Shown here piece after piece: positions 2,122-62,108 of a DNA stretch of 64,000 nt. The position numbers and the translations under genes were made by a program. Below the pieces are notes generated by a model, which was not told the origin of the DNA, made no database searches, and saw nothing but the letters and a program-made list of their open reading frames with translations. The stretch comes from Paramacrobiotus metropolitanus (Eukaryota > Tardigrada > Eutardigrada > Parachela > Macrobiotidae). Positions within the stretch are counted from its first letter, which is position 1, and every line of letters starts with the position of its first letter. Location: NCBI RefSeq assembly GCF_019649055.1, contig NW_026570225.1, forward strand, positions 186,001-250,000, in the 5' to 3' direction.

Positions 2122-5147
<3,026 letters not shown>

Positions 5148-6185
5148 TTTCACGGATATCTGATTCAGAATTCACGATTATGTTGTTATACCTGGATGAA
5201 TGCGAAGCAGAAAATCTGAAATATAAGAACGACAATTCTCTTAAGTGATACTGCAAATTACTTCTAAAAAATTGTTCTCGCAACTGACAAATGGAAAGCC
5301 AAAGCTTTTAAAAAATCACGAAAACAAACGCAAACTTGAAGTTGCAAGTCAAGCAGCAAGTGGAAACAGAAATCGCCGAGTAATGCTGTTCGTAGTAGTA
5401 TAGACGACATTTGAGGTTTGCGATACGCTTGCTTGATGTTCCAAGCTACATTTCTATGGCAACCGCTCAGAGACCTCGCTTTTATACTGGCGGTATCTTC
5501 CTTATCTATAAGCTCGTAACGCTACCAAAAAACTGAGCGGTTTAAAGCGGCGTGCATTTTTAAGCATGGGTTGGTGAGCGACATTTACGGGTTTTCACTT
5601 TTCACCGTTGGCAGGTTATCGAGGATCCTGGATTTATAAGATCTTTTCCGCAAGTGAAGTTTTCGATATCATTTCCTGTGAGTTGATACAGTTCCCTCCT
5701 TTCTGTAAGTTTGTGGCGGGAAGATCCACACTTCATCTACAGGCAACGTACGATATTTGTCGAGCTTGACGAGTGCAAGACGCTTGACTGTTTGAACTTA
5801 GAATGCAGTTCTCTTCGGGGTTTTTCTTGGTAGTTGAACGTCAGCGCAGACTTCCCATACCTGTTAATTCAATTTCCTTGTGATTCTGCCAGTCTCAGAC
5901 TTCGTTGGATCGTATATTCTTAATTTTTGTGACAAAACACAGTACTTGTTAGTCTTGCCGAAAGACCAGAATCATGGCGGTAACCGTAACACCGTAAAAT
6001 ATAAATTATAATTATTATTTACAATCTGAATCAGCGCTACAGGCGTTTCCTGTCGCTGCGAGCTTTAGTTTGTACAAAACTTTTTCGTAATTACAGACGG
6101 AACAGTACCTTCCTTAAAGTATTTTATCGCGATACCATTCATACCAATTCACCATCAGTCAAAGCAGATCATTGGTTTCAGAAAA
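5148..6185. promoter_or_regulatory. Divergent intergenic region between PSMC5 and ALYREF
   Basis: This stretch of about 1.04 kb lies between the start codons of two housekeeping genes transcribed away from each other, so it must hold both promoters and 5' UTRs. I see no convincing ORF, TATA box at a useful distance or repeat in it. A bidirectional promoter is an inference from gene orientation only. Confidence 0.4.
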
Positions 6186-7826
6186 ATGGCCGATGTTTCG
6201 TTGGACGATTACATCAAGAGCAAGCACATCGGTCGGGGCGACAAGGGACGTGGTGGCGCCCGCGGCCGAACGTCAGCGCGCGGCTCAACTGGCGGTGGCC
6301 GCGGTGGATTTCGGCGCCAGGGCGGTTTCCATTCCGATATCACGAAGAATATCGCTCCTCGCAAGCAACCAGTCTTTGTAAGTAGGGGAAATCTTATTCG
6401 ACAGCGCTGTTGTGCTGGCAGTTTTGCAGGCTAATTGAATTGCGACTTGTCATAATTTTGTGTCTGGTTTCACTTTGTAGCTAAACCGGAACAATTCGGG
6501 TATCCAGAACCGCTGGCAGCATGATCTTTTTGGATCCGGAGCCCCGGGTATCGCTGGGCTGATGACTGCCTTCAGCAATCCGACGGATGGTGGATACGGC
6601 ACCAAACTGCTCATTTCCAATCTGGATTTTGCAGTAACCGAGACTGATTTGCGGGTACGTGCATTGCTATTAGTCTATTACATCGTTCTGCAAAAACTTC
6701 GATTTTGTGATATGCATTTGTGTTTTGTCAAATAAGTCACTTATTTGTTACGCTTATACTGCCAAAAACCATAATAGTATGATGTGCCGAAAGTCCAAAA
6801 CACTTGTTAAAATTTTTGTTCTTCGATGGCCATTATTCTGCTGGTTACGTTTGAATTATTGCAGCTCCTCCGTGTTACTCTGTGTGGAAGCTGTAATCTA
6901 ACGTGTGCATTCTGTGTTTAGGAATTGTTTGGTGAGTTAGGCACCGTGAAGAAGGTATCCATCCACTGTGACCGAAACGGCGCGTCACTAGGCTCGGCGG
7001 AAGTGATTTATCAGCGAGCAGGCGATGCCGTCAATGCTTTGCAAAAATATAATGGGATTCCGCTTGATGGTTTGTGAATTTTCACTCTGTACCCGGAAAA
7101 TTCTATTTCAATAGTTTATGGGGTAGGATTGGTAGGATTATCGTGTTATCTGTTTCTTTAGGTCGCATAATGGAAATTCAGCTGATTGGTGGGAACCAGC
7201 CAAATGTTCGTGGTGGTAATTTCATGGGTGCACAATCGCGTCTTGGCATACCTGCCAGGCGCGCCTGGGCAGATGCCCCTTATGCTCGCCCTCGCGGTGG
7301 ACGGTAAGGTGAAATATTGTCAGTGATATTAATATTAGTGATGCTCGTAATAACACTTCAGATCCGTTATGAAGCGCATTTGCTTTCAGAAAATTACTGT
7401 AGTGTCGAGGGTGATGATAGAACATAGAACTATGTTGTAGTGGCTTCGCTAGAGGAGGCTTTGCTAGAGGCGGCACGCGAGGCGGATTCCAGAAGCGACC
7501 TGAAAAGCAGCAGCTCACCCAGGAACAGCTTGACATGGAGCTGGATAACTACCAGAATGTAAGGAGACCTTTTTAAAAATTGTTTCAGATTGATTGTGTA
7601 GCTGAATCAAGTGACAACTGACAGCATGTACTCAACGTGGTTGGCAGTTGTTAGCCAACAACATGATGTTAGCCACATGATGCAGCAACAATTTGACAAT
7701 TAAGGTGAAATTGTCAAATTTTTGATTGGCGAGTGCGCATCTGCCTGTATTACGTACGTGTACTGAAAGAACTGATGACAGTCTTGTGAGCTAATGTTTT
7801 TTTTTATTGATTTTCAGGAATCTTAA
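6186..7826 (+). CDS. ALYREF: THO/TREX mRNA export adaptor ALYREF (Aly/REF, THOC4)
   Basis: Exons 6186-6377, 6481-6654, 6922-7069, 7162-7303, 7441-7558 and 7818-7826 join to 783 nt, 260 residues, typical for the family. An N-terminal UAP56-binding-like start (MADVSLDDYIKSK) is followed by an RGG-rich segment (~20-55), one RRM (about 105-180, RNP2-like KLLISNLDF), a second RGG tract and the C-terminal UAP56-binding motif QLDMELDNYQ. ALYREF bridges the helicase UAP56/DDX39B, mRNA and the NXF1 export receptor in the nucleus. The last coding exon is only 9 nt (Glu-Ser-stop) after a 259 bp intron. If that intron were retained, translation would stop soon after NYQN, so the 3' end does little to the protein. 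The frame closes through all five introns. Confidence 0.95.
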
Positions 7827-9009
7827 TTGATCTTCTTCACGGTTAGCGCTGGCATTCGATTGGTATTTAACCTTCTTTCGTCATCGTTACCAGTGGCACG
7901 GGAATCCCAAAAGCCCGCCCGAGAACAATTCGCACCTTTGCTTTTCGGTTGGGGATTGTTGCTGCACCTTTGTGTTATTAGGTTTCATAGTGTTAAGGAC
8001 GTTCCTCGTTTTAGTTAAATAATCATTTCTTTTACGGAATGGTGTATTCACTGTTGCGAAACTTTTGGATCTCTTGTTTTCGTTTGCCAGGTTTTGCGAG
8101 AAGCGTTTTTTCAGGTTTCTGAGTTTGAAATTCGCGCATTCATGGACGGCCCTAACAGTGTATACTTCGGATACTTCGGTTGATGTTGTATTCACTGGTC
8201 AGTGCAAGTTTGTGTTCAGTCGATGAGAAAGTGTCTGTTGGTAATGTAAGTATAACTTGGCACTGCGCAGTGGCAGTTGAAATTTGCGAAAGGATGAAAT
8301 CATGAAGCATCAATGTGTGTTGCATTGTTATTGTTGATGGGAAGCTGGAATAAAACCAACTCGCATACAAATTTGATGTACGCATTATTTTGGAAAACTT
8401 TTTGAGAAGATATCAATCACTCATCTAGTGCCACAGAATTCAAGGGAGGATGAAAAATACTCGTGTACAACTAAAACACAATCGAAGTAATTATTTTCAT
8501 TGTTAAAAACTCGCACAATCATTATGAGTAGTTGATTCGGGGTAGATTTAGAAATTAACATGCTTTCTAATTTTTATTTACGCGCTTTCTATTAACGTGC
8601 TTCCTATTTTCTTCTGCTTTCTATTTCTTTCTTTTTATTTTTTTTGAAACCGGTGCTTTCTATTCCGAGTACGTAAGTATTTATTTACCCCAGTTGATCT
8701 GTGTAGCTTTAGCAGCATATGTCGCTCTTACAACACTTCCTATGCTACTGTACCAGTACCATGGGAAATTAGAAATGCGTTGCCGTGCATCAGCAAATCG
8801 AAATTTCGACTCGCATTTCGTTACGTCTTCATAATTTTGAACAAGCATTTAGTGCCATTTACAAAGCTGTTAAACAGTATATCGACTTATTCTACTGTAA
8901 TCGTTCCTAATGTACTGTGAGATATAAATTTTAGCGCAACCTACGCGCAATTTTAGCGCAACTTAGCGCGCTTAGAGGTTAAAAGCAGGTCGCCGTACAG
9001 GAGTCCACA
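7827..9009. other. Intergenic region ALYREF-RNPS1, no gene seen
   Basis: About 1.2 kb that should contain the ALYREF 3' UTR and the RNPS1 promoter and 5' UTR. Open stretches of 60-100 codons on both strands have no recognisable motif, no supporting splice structure and AT-rich composition. T-rich blocks near 8580-8650 look like ordinary low-complexity DNA. Confidence 0.5.
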
Positions 9010-55734: not shown

Positions 55735-57067
55735 ATGATCCTCAGCCGGCTGATTTTTTTATCGTGGATGACCATAAATTATACTTCCTTTGTGAATGGA
55801 ATTACTAACATACCCTCTCGTTCTTCCCCCTCGAAGAGGAAGTCTTCGAAAGGTTAGTTTTTCTGTACAGAACGGCAATGATCTACCTAGCTATCTGCTA
55901 CTAGTACTTGAAATATGAACTTGTGCATAACACGTAGAAATAAGTAGAATCATGGATTACCAATGCGCTGGTAACATTATCTAAGTAGGCTGTAGTGGAA
56001 CCTCCGTTTGGAAAACGGCCGAACCGTGAACAACCCGGGACTGCGCACAAGAAAATGCATACCGAGGGTGTTCGAGGTCGGGAGGTTCCGTCGTTGTGTG
56101 TGACTCTGCTAAAGTTGTAACTCTACTCTAATTTCGTAACTCTGCTAAAGTATCATCCAGCTAATTTTTCATTCGAGTAATTTTACACCTTCAGAAAACA
56201 AGTTAATGATAATTTTAGAGCGCGCGCAGGTACCTACTACAGATACAGTTACAATAAGCGATATTTCCCGCTATTTTCATTGTTTAGGCATATGCACGAC
56301 TGAACATTTAAATTTTCACAGATTTGAACAGAGCCGCTCTGCAACAAGCACCCCCTTCATGGAATCGCGATTTGGACGGGATTTATCGCCCTAATGGAGC
56401 TTCCCTACATTTCGCCCCACCTGAAGGCAGAATGTTTGCTCCCATTCCACCGGAAGTGAAAATTGTCTGCTCAGAATCCGGGATTTGTGGTTAGTCGTTA
56501 AGACTAATCTGAATGATCTTATTGTTAACGCTCATCTGATTCGAACCAGAAACCTAGAATAACAATAACTGGATCGAGCCAATAACTTAGAAGCCTCGAA
56601 ATTCTTCGGATTTATAAATTTTAGAACTTAAATTTAATAGCGTTAGTTTGATTGCTGTAAAGGATACCAAAAATGCATCCACTATACCTGGTACAATACA
56701 GCATTCTTACATTGAAGGCCCGCCTCGCACGCCCGCCGCCATTAGCCGCGGACCAGTTTCGACTGGAAGCAGCGCGAATCCCCGTTTCGCTAGCTACTCC
56801 TCCAGTCTGCCGTATAGCCAGAAGGGTGGCACATTATTCATTAGAAATATTGGAAACCGATTTATTCCAACACCTGCACCGACGGCAGCGTCGACTGCTT
56901 CTACGTACTCGACGCTAATTGCAAGTGCCGCGACGGTTACAAAGGTCATTACTACCGCTTCCATGGTAGACAGGTTCCCGCTATCGCATCATTCGACAGA
57001 AAAGATGGCACCTCCAAAAACAGCTCCCGATCTCGAGATTATGCTGCGTACTCTGTTTGGATGGTAA
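55735..57067 (+). CDS. LFGW-family secreted protein A (tandem paralogue 1, most diverged)
   Basis: Exons 55735-55852, 56322-56489 and 56718-57067 give 636 nt, 211 residues. A signal peptide (MILSRLIFLSWMTINYTSFV) is followed by a basic stretch (RSSPSKRKSS). Exon 2 carries SWNRDLDGIYRPNGASLHF and APPEGR, matching gene C. Exon 3 carries NPRFASYSSSLPYS, a Thr/Ala/Pro-rich spacer and ends LEIMLRTLFGW. Both introns are phase 1, as in B and C. Two cysteines occur in exon 2 (VCSESGIC) and none match B or C. The acceptor for exon 3 is uncertain: gaag at 56714-56717 keeps phase and alignment but has a weak pyrimidine tract, and an upstream acceptor at about 56667 paired with another donor (ccg gaa|gtgaaa) is possible. 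Function unknown; predicted secreted. I recognise no described family. Confidence 0.7.
55994..56092. mobile_element. Possible pogo/Tigger-like miniature element in intron 1 of LFGW gene A
   Basis: About 100 bp of GC-rich DNA inside an AT-rich intron begins TGGAACCTCCGTTTGG and ends with the complement GGAGGTTCC. Ends of the form CAGTGGAACCTCCGTTT are typical of pogo-like elements, which is the basis for the guess. The inverted repeat is short (9 bp exact) and a TA duplication is not clear. Confidence 0.35.
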
Positions 57068-58795
57068 ATCCGGCTAAGAAATAATTATGATTGTATCGAT
57101 ATCATAGCACTGTGCTATAATATTATACGAGACTGGTCAATAGTTGTACCAGTGCGATTACAGTATGGCTATAGTGTGCCAGATTAAACAGCGAAATTTC
57201 GTGCTTTTATGATTGAGCGGCCCCATGATTCACTGGAACACTGCATGGCAGGTGTGGAAAACTAGACCCGGTTCAATATAGGAAATTAGAGTCTTGCAAC
57301 ACCCTGGAATCTGTTTCGCCGGGTTTTGCATCACGTGATACGATATTCGGCTTGTGAACGATCCGGGTCTAAACTCGTACGAGTTGCAGTACTTAAGATT
57401 TTCAGCATTGACTTCTATGGGAAAATTCACTATCACCTGAATACATTCTGGTTGTACTGAAGTATTGCTGGTAACATTACTTATACAGAAAGCGCTTGTA
57501 CGTACAGTGCGTGGATTAGTAATAATCTTGACTGACCGAATTACCACCTAACGTGACAATGATCTACTTAAAAGTTAAGGTTATTATCAATCGTACAAAG
57601 TAAATGCGAGCACACAAGTTCTACAGTAATTAAGTCAAATATGGCTGAGTAATATCATGCTATAAATTGCGCGAACAATACTATAATATATAGATATGTA
57701 ATGTACAAGTGGAATGTACAGTAAATACTGCATAGCACATATCGTACATACAGGAGGTACTGTCACATCTTTATTAACAAAATTACGAAAGATACAGCAT
57801 ACTGTATTGTAAGCGCGCAACAGGTCAGAGATCTCGGACTAGTCTGGTTTGGAATCTTGCCTACGTAGTGCGAAAATTGGATTTCAGGCTTGATTAATCC
57901 TTATAGTCAACTTTTGGTGAATTGTCACTATTGCGTATTTCTTATTTAATTAAGACACATAACGAAGACCACACTCCCATAGCGAAAACCTTACTCTTAT
58001 ATCCGTTAAGAGTATCGGAAGAGAATATCACTCATCGGAGCTGTCGACAAGAGTAACCGTTTGGGACCATTTCCCTTCTTGTTGTCATTATCCCAAATAG
58101 CAACTAATGTAGCAACTAATGCACTTTAAGCATTTTCAACTTAACAACAAACTCGAACAGCTGGGGCCAGGAGCCCGGGAGCTAGGTTGATAGCGCCCCT
58201 TCATTAATGACCATCTGTTCAAGAAAATTAAGTATGAGATAAGTCAGTGAACTACGTCTAAACCTACTCGTACCGCTTTCCACTTATACTTGAAGTATAT
58301 ATATAATGGCGGTTGATCCCGCTCACTCAGTATCTGGGGTACATGGTCATGAGCACGGCCGGGTATCGATAGGCAATCTTTCTATATTATCGATTAGTGA
58401 TTTACCTTCCCTCTGACATTTATTCATACTCATGCTCATAGTAATATATTAACACGAGCATAATAGGTGACGTTACTTAGTTCAGGAGAAAAATACATAC
58501 CTATATGACTGCTTATAACCTGATAAGCCCTACAAACCGGTGGTAACAATTTTTAAGTTTAATAATGTGCGAATCTTTGGAAACAGGATAATATACGTAA
58601 ATACAACGTTCAAGAAAGAGCAGAAAGCATCATTAATTTTTATGGCGCAATATTCGCTGCAAGCTCTGCTTAGGTTCAGAGCCGGCTGTAAATTGTAATC
58701 ACCTTGAATTTCCCAAATGTTGTGTGATCTGGTAGTGCCGAAGGGAATAAAACATTTTTATTCCAATCCGTACTCTAGTTTCCGTGTAGTCGGAC
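57068..58795. other. Intergenic region between LFGW genes A and B, no gene seen
   Basis: 1.73 kb AT-rich DNA. No remnant of a further LFGW copy is visible: I looked for the PNGRSVQF and LLRTLFGW blocks on both strands and found none here. Confidence 0.45.
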
Positions 58796-59947
58796 ATGCA
58801 TCATTTTGATCGGCATCATGTTTACGGCAATGCTTTGCTTCAGCAGCTATGTGTAGCCGATTTTTTAACGAGATGCCTTAGCTCTGTTTTTTTCTTGATT
58901 TGGGTAATAGCAACTTTTAACAACAGCGCAAGTGCTTTCGTAAATGTATTTCCGCAAGTTCGCAGTTCGACGTTTGCTATCTGGCCCGCACCGAGAAGGC
59001 TGTCATTGAGAGAAACCCACCGCCAAAGCGAAAATGCGCCAAATTCACCTTCATTGTCCTGTAAGTTGAAATTAGGTGTCTTATCTCGGACAATTTAAGG
59101 ATCTTATAAACAGCAAGCATGTGCAATTGTTTCCTGTGATTCTCACGATTGTATAGACTGCAATGTGAAATAATTTTTTACTGGAGGGAAGCATAATAAG
59201 TATCAACGACAACGCAGTAACTCCTGTATAGAGGTGTAAAGGACTCGAAAGTAAAATGCTCCATGCCCAAATTTTTCAAATTTTTAGCCCACTTTGACCA
59301 TCCAAATGTAGGCGTACTGTACCATCCTAACGGTCGATCCGTGCAGTTCGGCCCGGTGCAACTTCAGTCCCAATTACTCATTCCGTCGTCGCCAGCCAAC
59401 GCTTTTGGCTTGCGTCAGCAGAAGCCGGTTACGGGAATTGTAGCACCCGCTGCAGCGATCGCTGTGGACGAGCCAAATTCAGGTGCGCCAGGAATATTTG
59501 TGGTCATTTCATGCGATTCCATTTAAGCGGTCTGGTTAGCCAGTGTCGCTTTTAGCTAATCTACTTGTAAGTTGCGCCCTAAGCAACCTTTCTCCTGTAG
59601 ATGACAAATGGCTCATCTCCTCGGCACTGCGCGGATCAGCTTTCACCGGTTCTAGCGGCAATGCGCGTTATGCCGCATTCTCTGTCAGTAATCCTTACCA
59701 ACCAACAGGCACACTGAATTTGTTAGTACCCAAGAATTTTGTACGTACCAAGAAGAAAGATGCGTACACAGTTGTCTATCCAGTAACATCTACAACTCTG
59801 CCCTCGGAAGTGGAGCCCATTACTGTCGCAACTGCAGATGTCCGAAACTTCTTATCAGTAACGGTATCAGACGTACTTACTGGAGCGACACCAGTGCCAT
59901 CCCAGGAAGATCTGCAAACATTACTGCAAACACTTTTCGGATGGTAG
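58796..59947 (+). CDS. LFGW-family secreted protein B (tandem paralogue 2)
   Basis: Exons 58796-59060, 59288-59482 and 59601-59947 give 807 nt, 268 residues, both introns in phase 1. The first ATG gives a ~35-residue hydrophilic lead before the hydrophobic stretch CLSSVFFLIWVIATFNNSASA, so the start may be wrong or the segment may act as a signal anchor. Exon 1 ends with LRETHRQSENAP, shared with C (LRATHRQNVNAP). Exon 2 carries LYHPNGRSVQF; the APPEGR block seen in A and C is altered to GPVQLQ, and an Ala/Pro/Gln-rich segment follows. Exon 3 has NARYAAFSVSNPYQPTGT, a Thr/Val-rich spacer and the end SQEDLQTLLQTLFGW. The mature part has almost no cysteine, so no disulfide scaffold. Function unknown. 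Confidence 0.75.
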
Positions 59948-60441
59948 CAAATATCGGTTGTAATTAGTTAAATGATGTACTTGTGTGTATGGCGGTTATG
60001 TAAGCCACACCCGGCCGTATAGGTACTTGCCGTTCTTTTATCTTGGAAGTTCTTAAATATGTATATATATATATATAGTACACCATGTGCTTGGTGACAT
60101 AACTGTTAAGAAACCTGTAAGAACTAACTAATCGTATCAGGTCTTCAAACCATGCGAATTAAGCATGCTTTTCTAGCTGTGTCTGTATTGTTCAAACTCG
60201 CGCAACTTCCTCATAAATACTTGTATGAGTACAACGATAAAACAGGCTAGCTAATTTGTGTTGCATGAAGTACCGGTATATTTTTGTGTACCATAAAATA
60301 TTGTACCAATGCCAAAAGTACCTACTAATTTAGTTCCTCCTTCAAGTAAACATGGCTTGGTGTGCACTGTGTAGTTTTTTACTTGAAGTTGCCTGTACCG
60401 GTGGTAATAATGCGACGCTGCACCTCGACAAGAAGCGGTTG
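59948..60441. other. Short intergenic region between LFGW genes B and C, with a TA microsatellite
   Basis: About 490 bp (405 bp to the earliest possible ATG of gene C at 60352). It contains a (TA)n run at about 60059-60077. No gene is supported apart from the possible N-terminal extension of gene C. Confidence 0.45.
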
Positions 60442-62108
60442 ATGGTGGTCAGGTTATTTGTTCTGCTGTTTAGCTCACAGTGCCTCGCAATCCAGAATAG
60501 CCAAGCAAACCGTAATACAAACGGTGGGCTTCGGCCTAGAGCAAATGCAGGCCAACTCCGTTCCCTGCAGGACAAAGGACTTCCACTGCGAGCCACACAT
60601 CGTCAGAATGTAAATGCGCCAGCTGCGAATTCAGGTAGCTACGCCCCATGGTTAACAATGAGTTCAGGAACAATTTGGTCCCGGTATTGTAGACTGTGTC
60701 AATATAAATATAATATAAGAAGAGTTAATACTCGTAAACAGAGAACAGCAGACGATCTTGCATAGTGCAGGGGAAAGGAAAATTTTTGTTATACCGGTAA
60801 TGAAAGCAAAACAAGAGCATAACATATGGGACTACACGTACGTAGTGCCGTACGAGTATGTACGGAACTGTTAATGTAAATAATTTTAATGGTTAGCCAA
60901 TGCAATATGTTTGGTATCTAATGGCAAATGCTATCATGTTTGGTGTTCATTCGTAACTTCCGTTTGCTAATGAATAATTACCGGCACTAGAAGTATACCA
61001 AATTTGAGCCGCATAGTCGAATGAATGAATTCATGCACCTAATGCGCGGCTCCGTTTAGGCCAGCTAATTACGTTTAGATCAGATAATTTCGTTGACATA
61101 TCAGCATGTTTTGGTAAGACAATATCACTGCCAACAGAACGACGTTTTTCTCTAAGGTGACAATTGGGGAAGGGTTCTGGACGATCTCTTACATCCAAAT
61201 GGACGGTCCGTGCAGTTTGCGCCACCTGAAGGCCGACTGATTGGTGCCCCAGCTGGGCAAATTATAAATGCCGTAGCTGCCATGCCATCTTCATCTGTAC
61301 CGGCTCCGGCGGCGGCATTAGCTAGCCCGGCTGCGATTACAGTTCCTGGACAAAGTGCAACCTCACCAGGTCAGTGTCTGGCATGGATACGAATAATCTA
61401 TGCGTTGGTTTCCTTGTAATTAACTTCACTCACCCTGCGTTCGCGAGCGTGCATGGCTGACGAAATCCTCAGAAAAAATGCAAATTCATCGCTTCCCTCT
61501 ACGTTAAAAGTATACTGTACACGTGTATTTTGATGTGCATGCAACGGAATAAACAGACAGTTTTGACGTGCATGCAAAGGGAACCAACATGCAGTTGTGT
61601 ATTTTCGTGATTTGTGTTTTCAATGTGTATTAGCGTTAATCCTGCGCATTATTAATTTAATGGTAGGCTGCACGTTTGTTACCTCGTATCATTGAGAAAA
61701 GCGGCTTTTACACATTTCTACGGTGCTCTTTTCAATCAACTATTTTACTAATTAGGAGCAAATCCACCAGCCCCTGCCGCCATAGAACGTGCACCGACGT
61801 CCAATTTCGCCAGTTCAAATCCACGTTATGCCGCGTTTTCAGTCAGCCAACCGTATCAGCAAACAGCTACGTTTAGTCTAATGATCCAGCGGAATTCTGG
61901 AAATATCCTCAGTAGATATAATCTAAACAACCGAATTACAACAATCGCACCGGCTCTTTCGAGTTCCACAACTTCCGCACCCGAAACACCACCGGCAAAG
62001 GTCACAACGGCCTGGTCCTTCGTGGACGACGGAATAGTGTCGACGCCTGCAAGTCCCCGATCCCAAGAAGATTTGCAAACATTACTCCGCACTCTTTTTG
62101 GTTGGTGA
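60442..62108 (+). CDS. LFGW-family secreted protein C (tandem paralogue 3)
   Basis: Exons 60442-60634, 61157-61369 and 61756-62108 give 759 nt, 252 residues; an in-frame ATG at 60352 would add 30 residues (MAWCALCSFLLEV). I chose 60442 because MVVRLFVLLFSSQCLA is a textbook signal peptide with an Ala-x-Ala-like end. Exon 1 has LRATHRQNVNAP; exon 2 has NWGRVLDDLLHPNGRSVQF and APPEGR, then an Ala/Pro/Ser-rich stretch; exon 3 has NPRYAAFSVSQPYQQTATF, a Thr/Ser/Pro spacer and SQEDLQTLLRTLFGW at the end. Both introns are phase 1. Protein C is the link between A (shared exon 2) and B (shared exon 1 and 3 blocks). Nucleotide similarity with B over the last 16 codons is high, so B and C are the younger pair. 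Polyadenylation signal at 62270. Function unknown. Confidence 0.8.

What the first reader, a model, noticed from the sequence alone, without database searches (positions are those of the whole stretch)
55735..62108. Tandem cluster of an apparently undescribed secreted protein family ending in LFGW
Three consecutive same-strand genes each have three exons, two phase-1 introns, a hydrophobic N-terminus and no recognisable domain, yet share ordered motif blocks: THRQ..NAP at the end of exon 1 (B, C), W.R.LD..xHPNGRSVQF and APPEGR in exon 2, N(P/A)RYAAFSVSxPYQ at the start of exon 3, and a C-terminal amphipathic LQTLLRTLFGW. The spacers are Thr/Ala/Pro/Ser-rich and very variable. I know of no family with this plan. 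Few cysteines and disordered spacers suggest an extracellular matrix, cuticle or stress-related secreted protein, but that is a guess.
Basis: partly seen in the sequence, partly recalled or inferred. Interest (0 to 1): 0.85.

Follow-up and report, generated by a model that had tools for sequence, protein, structure and literature searches.

The report
Tardigrade secreted LFGW-tailed protein family
Three neighbouring genes in what is almost certainly a tardigrade genome make unfamiliar, probably secreted proteins with the same Leu-Phe-Gly-Trp tail, and they belong to a larger family scattered over the genome whose job is unknown.

Summary
Genes A, B and C (55735-62108, + strand) each have three exons and two phase-1 GT-AG introns. 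Their third exons are clearly homologous (whole-genome E 1.2e-12 and 5.9e-10), though several listed motifs occur in only two genes. The genome fits the tardigrade Paramacrobiotus sp. TYO by assembly size, longest scaffold and three TPS loci. The cluster is part of a family of 14 supported genes or remnants at seven loci, with one more probable and one doubtful. Exon-3 profiles built without a locus recover it, one member only weakly. dN/dS in exons 2 and 3 is 0.15-0.27. Exon 2 failed the cross-locus test. No Pfam, NCBIfam or PDB relative was found. My best reading is a lineage-restricted, disordered, secreted structural protein whose aromatic block and LFGW tail are sticky ends around a variable Ser/Thr/Ala/Pro spacer. 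The family is well supported; the function is inference. Other tardigrades, expression and structure could not be tested.

The parts
55735..55852 (+). Gene A exon 1: hydrophobic N-terminus (probable signal peptide), phase-1 donor
   Evidence: max mean hydropathy over 15 residues 1.35
56322..56489 (+). Gene A exon 2: SWNRDLDGIYRPNGASLHFAPPEGR block
   Evidence: match of C exon 2, E 3.6e-4
56718..57067 (+). Gene A exon 3: NPRFASYSSSLPY block, Ser/Thr/Ala/Pro-rich spacer, tail LFGW, stop TAA
   Evidence: the acceptor has a poor pyrimidine tract
58796..59060 (+). Gene B exon 1 (start codon uncertain): hydrophobic stretch, THRQSENAP near its end
59288..59482 (+). Gene B exon 2: YHPNGRSVQF block; lacks APPEGR
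   Evidence: (E 0.107)
59601..59947 (+). Gene B exon 3: NARYAAFSVSNPYQ block, spacer, LQTLLQTLFGW, stop TAG
   Evidence: (E 1.2e-12)
60442..60634 (+). Gene C exon 1: signal-peptide-like MVVRLFVLLFSSQCLA, THRQNVNAP near its end
61157..61369 (+). Gene C exon 2: NWGRVLDDLLHPNGRSVQFAPPEGR block, Ala/Pro-rich spacer
61756..62108 (+). Gene C exon 3: NPRYAAFSVSQPYQ block, spacer, LQTLLRTLFGW, stop TGA; AATAAA 162 bases after the stop

Best explanation
A, B and C are three tandem members of a rapidly diverging, lineage-restricted family of small secreted proteins in a tardigrade, very probably Paramacrobiotus sp. TYO. Shown: the gene plan by sequence, purifying selection on the coding sequence, dispersal over the genome, the conserved exon-3 N-terminal block, and the tail that ends exactly at LFGW. 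Inferred: a signal peptide sends the protein out of the cell. The Ser/Thr/Ala/Pro-rich middle, which lacks cysteine in exon 3, stays disordered. The aromatic, strand-prone block (RGP..N.RY..FS...PY....TFS..I.R) and the hydrophobic C-terminal LxxLFGW tail act as two sticky ends that join copies to each other or to a matrix. The family would thus be structural material of an extracellular layer such as cuticle, pharyngeal lining or eggshell.
For: Gene models, all six introns phase 1; good phase-1 donors at matching places in copies on C48 and C56. Copies on C66, C2 (two places), C48, C56 and C260. Leave-one-locus-out exon-3 profiles recover held-out members: C5 1.1e-8, 8.1e-5 and 1e-8; C66 5.2e-19 and 7.3e-7; C2a 3.5e-20; C48b 4e-17; C56a 4.3e-4, C56c 4.6e-4; C2b 7.1e-5, C2c 0.049; C260 7.3e-7; best reversed decoy 0.31. 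dN/dS 0.15-0.47 in the 7 of 11 comparisons where dS was not saturated. In 12 of 12 aligned exon 3s the R of N.RY and the F and W of the tail are invariant; none has a cysteine; S+T+A+P make up 33-50%. Repeated local duplication: three genes on C5, three on C56, pairs on C66 and C2, and two 42 kb apart on C48. Functional analogy: secreted disordered protein families are thought to flood the C. elegans pharyngeal cuticle (PMC9629831; passages seen).
Against: No expression, localisation or structure data. Disorder is judged from composition only; the structure predictor was switched off. The tail is weakly amphipathic. Charge is not a uniform family property: exon-3 pI runs from 4.6 to 12.0. Exon 2 homology across loci failed its test. 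The C2a exon-2 frame has no phase-1 donor after its block. Some copies are linked only weakly by single queries: C260 finds no other member below E 0.58, and C2b finds only its neighbour C2c. By eye, no glycine-, tyrosine- or histidine-rich repeats typical of many cuticle proteins.
Confidence: 0.35

Rival explanations
1. Secreted soluble effectors or signals, for example immune, reproductive or salivary proteins. The conserved C-terminal LxxLFGW is the active or receptor-binding end, and fast divergence of the rest reflects conflict or sexual selection.
For: The strictest conservation is at the very C-terminus, with the stop right after W in 11 of 12 aligned members. Divergence elsewhere, and local birth of copies.
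Against: Pairwise dN/dS in exons 2 and 3 is 0.15-0.27, so no overall positive selection; single sites under positive selection are not excluded, and exon 1 of C56a and C56c is less constrained (0.47). No cysteine in exon 3; no relation to a known effector family.
Confidence: 0.27
2. Precursors of secreted peptides, cut at basic sites between the aromatic block and the tail.
For: 10 of 12 exon 3s have a dibasic pair somewhere, most of them just after the block, and C48b has a furin-like RQRR.
Against: Two of 12 (C5A, C5C) have no dibasic pair; in C66a and C2c the pairs are not just after the block. Only one of 12 has a furin-type site. No repeated peptide units were seen, and the tail ends in W with no amidation glycine.
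Confidence: 0.12
3. Very diverged members of a known secreted family (for example an arthropod cuticle, mucin or tardigrade heat-soluble family) that sequence profiles cannot see.
For: Composition and size resemble many low-complexity secreted proteins (recalled).
Against: No meaningful Pfam, NCBIfam or PDB match. The PDB is recalled to include a tardigrade SAHS structure; no chain was hit.
Confidence: 0.18
4. Not genes: chance open frames, decayed repeats or one long transcript.
For: Some splice sites are weak. Two other copies, C48a and C56b, have exon 3 in two frames. B has no polyadenylation hexamer within 600 bases of its stop.
Against: Homology over many loci and a strong excess of silent changes. 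No transposon domain in the family proteins tested against Pfam. A and C each have a polyadenylation-like hexamer after the stop.
Confidence: 0.05

Closest known systems
Secreted intrinsically disordered families of the C. elegans pharyngeal cuticle (IDPA, IDPB, IDPC, APPG; PMC9629831, passages seen)
   Same: Ecdysozoan multigene families of probably secreted proteins with biased composition and likely disorder.
   Different: Sequence relation was not tested, because the worm sequences were not at hand. The APPGs are described there as low-complexity and prion-like; the present family has short conserved blocks and a fixed LFGW end.
Tardigrade SAHS proteins (secretory abundant heat soluble)
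   Same: Secreted, tardigrade-specific multigene family (PMC11191345, passage).
   Different: SAHS proteins have a fatty-acid-binding-protein fold (recalled). No PDB chain matched full-length C at E <= 10, and the exon-3 profile's best match was E 0.49, unrelated.
Mucin-like or generic arthropod cuticle proteins
   Same: Ser/Thr/Ala/Pro-rich extracellular spacers (general knowledge).
   Different: No chitin-binding or other Pfam domain found.

Membership tests
LFGW-tail family defined here | Exon 3 with N.R[YF] block and C-terminal LFGW at the stop | tested here: met
   A, B and C recovered by a profile built from the other loci at E 1.1e-8, 8.1e-5 and 1e-8
LFGW-tail family defined here | Exon 2 block conserved across loci | tested here: not met
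   11 exon-2 segments from five groups; held-out groups not recovered in any of 5 leave-outs at the printed cut-off of E 3. Exon 2 of C66 and C260 was not identified and not included
LFGW-tail family defined here | Three exons, two phase-1 introns | tested here: inconclusive
   Met in A, B, C by sequence. Good phase-1 donors for exons 1 and 2 in C48a, C48b, C56a and C56c and for exon 2 in C56b; candidate exon-2 donors in C2b and C2c; none in the C2a exon-2 frame; not worked out for C66a, C66b and C260. No RNA
Pfam or NCBIfam family | Score above curated cut-off | tested here: not met
SAHS (FABP-like fold) | Sequence match to a solved relative | tested here: not met
   no chain at E <= 10; that a SAHS chain is in the set is recalled
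SAHS (FABP-like fold) | Beta-barrel fold | not testable with these tools
   Structure prediction switched off
Secreted disordered cuticle proteins | N-terminal signal peptide | tested here: inconclusive
   Hydropathy only; clear for C, moderate for A, start uncertain for B
Secreted disordered cuticle proteins | Expression in a cuticle-secreting tissue at moult | not testable with these tools
   no RNA data

The most novel reading that the evidence does not exclude
A tardigrade-specific (perhaps macrobiotid-specific) extracellular polymer system: a family in which an arginine-tyrosine block and an LxxLFGW C-terminus are complementary assembly modules. Each paralogue would contribute a different disordered spacer to a layered secreted material such as the ornamented eggshell or the cuticle that folds in tun formation.
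Probability: 0.12. Interest if true: 0.7.

Novelty: new member of a known kind. Interest (0 to 1): 0.4.

Why it matters
Tardigrade-unique proteins have repeatedly been of interest (CAHS, SAHS, Dsup), while the secreted structural set is, to my knowledge, poorly described. This gives a defined family of about 15 genes, with coordinates, a diagnostic motif and evidence of selection, that can be looked up in Paramacrobiotus RNA-seq and in other tardigrade genomes. If it turned out to be eggshell or cuticle material, it would open the molecular make-up of structures known mainly from microscopy. If it is only another fast-evolving orphan family, it is ordinary.

Tried and rejected
Exon 2 as a family-wide domain: rejected. 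Held-out groups were not recovered in 5 of 5 leave-outs, and one reversed decoy scored 0.002.

C91:114957 (E 0.91): rejected. The matching frame lies opposite a 256-aa frame with a Vps62 match.

Tail pattern alone as a finder: the loose pattern gave 187 hits against 210 for its control, and only the first 100 places were listed. The strict one gave 31 against 14. Of the 31, 11 are family members. I read 12 of the other 20 and none belonged to the family (none was hit by the profiles). Eight were not read. The strict pattern misses members with a shifted leucine, such as C260.

Average-sequence query: 18 matches. 14 rows belong to 13 of the 14 members; C2b and C204 were not found. C192:74361 (one stop inside; profile E 0.023 in a small database) is doubtful and not counted. 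C97, C12 and C96 (E 2.3 to 9) and C134 (E 4) were not read.

C204: probable but weak (E 4e-5 to 0.13 in the seven profiles, none of which was built with it; tail LFGF), counted apart.

Looking for more copies next to C66 and C48a: L025 (9,000 bases) and L029 (2,500 bases) gave none (L029 only).

Peptide precursor with a conserved cleavage site: rejected as a general rule.

Prokaryotic relatives: a single-protein scan found none. It finds close relatives only, so it says little.

Literature searches on Paramacrobiotus and on tardigrade secreted, eggshell, cuticle, orphan and lineage-specific genes listed nothing that I could see describes this family. Only listings were read, except passages of PMC8277472, PMC11191345 and PMC9629831. 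Supplements, preprints and closed papers were not seen.
Full report
What is there. Three genes lie head to tail on the + strand. Upstream are frames with a zinc carboxypeptidase domain and a carboxypeptidase-regulatory domain, probably one gene; downstream, on the minus strand, is a nucleoside transporter (Pfam). Gene A has exons 55735-55852, 56322-56489 and 56718-57067 (211 aa). Gene B has 58796-59060, 59288-59482 and 59601-59947 (268 aa, start uncertain). Gene C has 60442-60634, 61157-61369 and 61756-62108 (252 aa). All six introns are GT-AG and phase 1, 118 to 522 bases long. No RNA evidence was available, and several splice sites are weak.

Is it more than chance? Yes. The third exon of C, searched against the whole genome in six frames, finds B at E 1.2e-12 and A at 5.9e-10. 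Exon 2 of C finds A at 3.6e-4 and B at only 0.107.

Which organism? The window lies in G000, 169,799,020 bases in 533 contigs. The draft genome of the tardigrade Paramacrobiotus sp. TYO is 170,483,395 bases in 684 scaffolds, longest 4,484,941, with three TPS-TPP genes (PMC8277472, passages). G000 has TPS matches at three loci, and its contig C1 is 4,484,719 bases. The contig number differs; C533 is 10,170 bases long, so the shortest contigs may have been left out (inference). I take the window to be from this species, now called P. metropolitanus (recalled; the link between the two names comes from no call). This rests on assembly figures, not on a sequence comparison.

The family is much larger than the cluster. 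Walking from exon to exon with single-protein queries and a tail pattern gave further copies. C66 has two, 120426-120770 and 121819-122208, minus strand. C2 has one at 2,620,466 and a pair at 2,828,954 and 2,831,411. C48 has two at 889,205 and 931,116, 42 kb apart. C56 has three at 824,070, 826,586 and 833,143. C260 has one at 59,387 (E 0.64, then read). With the window this makes 14 genes or gene remnants at seven loci. C204 is a probable 15th and C192 is doubtful. Two copies look damaged or misassembled: C48a and C56b have exon 3 in two frames, and C48a has no ATG in the exon-1 frame listed. The links are uneven: C260 as a query finds no other member below E 0.58, and C2b finds only C2c (E 4.5e-4). 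An average sequence of the family found 13 of the 14 members, missing C2b, and did not find C204.

Test of the family. I built exon-3 profiles from 12 members (C48a and C56b left aside), leaving out one locus at a time, and searched 4,251 frames of the fetched DNA and the window plus the same number reversed. Held-out members were recovered as follows: C5A 1.1e-8, C5B 8.1e-5, C5C 1e-8; C66 5.2e-19 and 7.3e-7; C2a 3.5e-20; C48b 4e-17; C56a 4.3e-4, C56c 4.6e-4; C2b 7.1e-5, C2c 0.049; C260 7.3e-7. The best reversed sequence in the seven runs scored 0.31, so C2c on its own is only modestly above the noise. The limits are that the DNA searched was mostly fetched because it resembled the family, and that the E-values are for this small set. 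The same test for exon 2, with 11 segments and five leave-outs, recovered none of the held-out groups, and a reversed frame reached 0.002. So homology across loci is established for exon 3 only. The exon 2 'P.GR...[YF]' likeness between loci is by eye.

Coding status. In 11 pairwise codon comparisons, dS was saturated in four. In the other seven dN/dS was 0.15, 0.21, 0.26, 0.18, 0.47 (exon 1 of C56a and C56c), 0.22 and 0.27. These proteins are under purifying selection while silent sites are heavily changed. The segments were chosen within open frames, which biases this slightly.

Anatomy. Across 12 aligned exon 3s, three columns are invariant: R of N.R[YF], and F and W of the tail. R of RGP, and L and G of the tail, are kept in 11 of 12. 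Eleven of 12 end exactly in LFGW; C66b ends in IFNWS. Outside the C5 cluster the tail is preceded by a recurring [ND]-L-[ST]-x-S-x-P-x-T-A-x-S-L pattern in C66a, C2a, C48b, C56a and C56c (alignment), but not in C66b, C2b, C2c or C260. None of the 12 exon 3s has a cysteine. Ser, Thr, Ala and Pro make up 33 to 50%. pI runs from 4.6 to 12.0, 8.6 or higher in 10 of 12. N-glycosylation sites occur in 7 of 12 and dibasic pairs in 10 of 12, not at one fixed place. The tail is weakly amphipathic at best. Hydropathy supports a signal peptide in C clearly, in A moderately, and in B only if the start is as modelled. Good phase-1 donors at matching places exist at the ends of exons 1 and 2 in C48a, C48b, C56a and C56c, and of exon 2 in C56b. 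The C2a exon-2 frame has none, and C66 and C260 were not worked out. So the 1-1 exon plan may be ancestral but is not shown for every copy.

Known relatives. None found: no meaningful Pfam match for the three proteins and the C66a exon 3 (best E 1.7), none for 12 exon 3s (best E 0.22, one member), no NCBIfam match, no convincing PDB match (best 0.49; none for full-length C). A prokaryote scan with C gave none. No eukaryotic genome other than G000 could be searched, so whether the family exists in other tardigrades or other animals is unknown. That is the largest gap. The word LFGW occurs in one paper of the library, on sea cucumber peptides (listing).

How it most likely works. Shown: gene plan by sequence, selection, a fixed tail, a conserved aromatic block, a variable low-complexity spacer without cysteine, and repeated local duplication. 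Inferred: secretion, disorder, and use as extracellular structural material in which block and tail are the contact points. The nearest functional analogy is the secreted disordered families of the C. elegans pharyngeal cuticle (PMC9629831, passages); this is an analogy of kind, not homology. A soluble effector or signal with an active C-terminus is the main rival. My confidence is about 0.9 that the family is real and coding, 0.75 that it is secreted, and 0.35 for the structural role.

Verdict. The finding is real and the family appears undescribed in what could be searched, but lineage-specific secreted families are common in animals (general knowledge). It is a useful lead rather than a surprise.

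Noticed in passing
L006 (G000:C56:822501-832500), about 6041-7875, minus strand: A retroelement with a reverse transcriptase (Pfam RVT_1, E 1e-14) and a weak tyrosine-recombinase-like frame (E 0.003, below Pfam's cut-off) sits between the second and third C56 family copies; it looks DIRS-like (label recalled).
   Followed up: partly
G000 C67, C84, C208: Three trehalose-6-phosphate synthase loci; those on C67 and C208 carry stop codons inside one matched stretch each, which may be introns or decay.
   Followed up: no
L002 (G000:C91:112500-117500), 2358-3125, minus strand: A 256-aa frame with a Vps62 Pfam match (E 4.3e-13) and, by eye, a hydrophobic leader-like stretch ahead of it.
   Followed up: partly
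L022 (G000:C2:2824500-2834499), frame 2 to about 652: A 217-aa frame, open at the locus edge, rich in Thr/Asn/Gln and ending KVRQIFRDLLGITI, lies upstream of the C2 pair; it has no LFGW tail, but its ending is of a similar hydrophobic type.
   Followed up: no
L024 (G000:C204:20500-28500), minus strand, 4850-5910 in reverse coordinates: The probable C204 member seems built of internal repeats (TASSRTVTTALSK and an RLSN..SAPAQ-like block) in several frames and ends in LFGF.
   Followed up: partly
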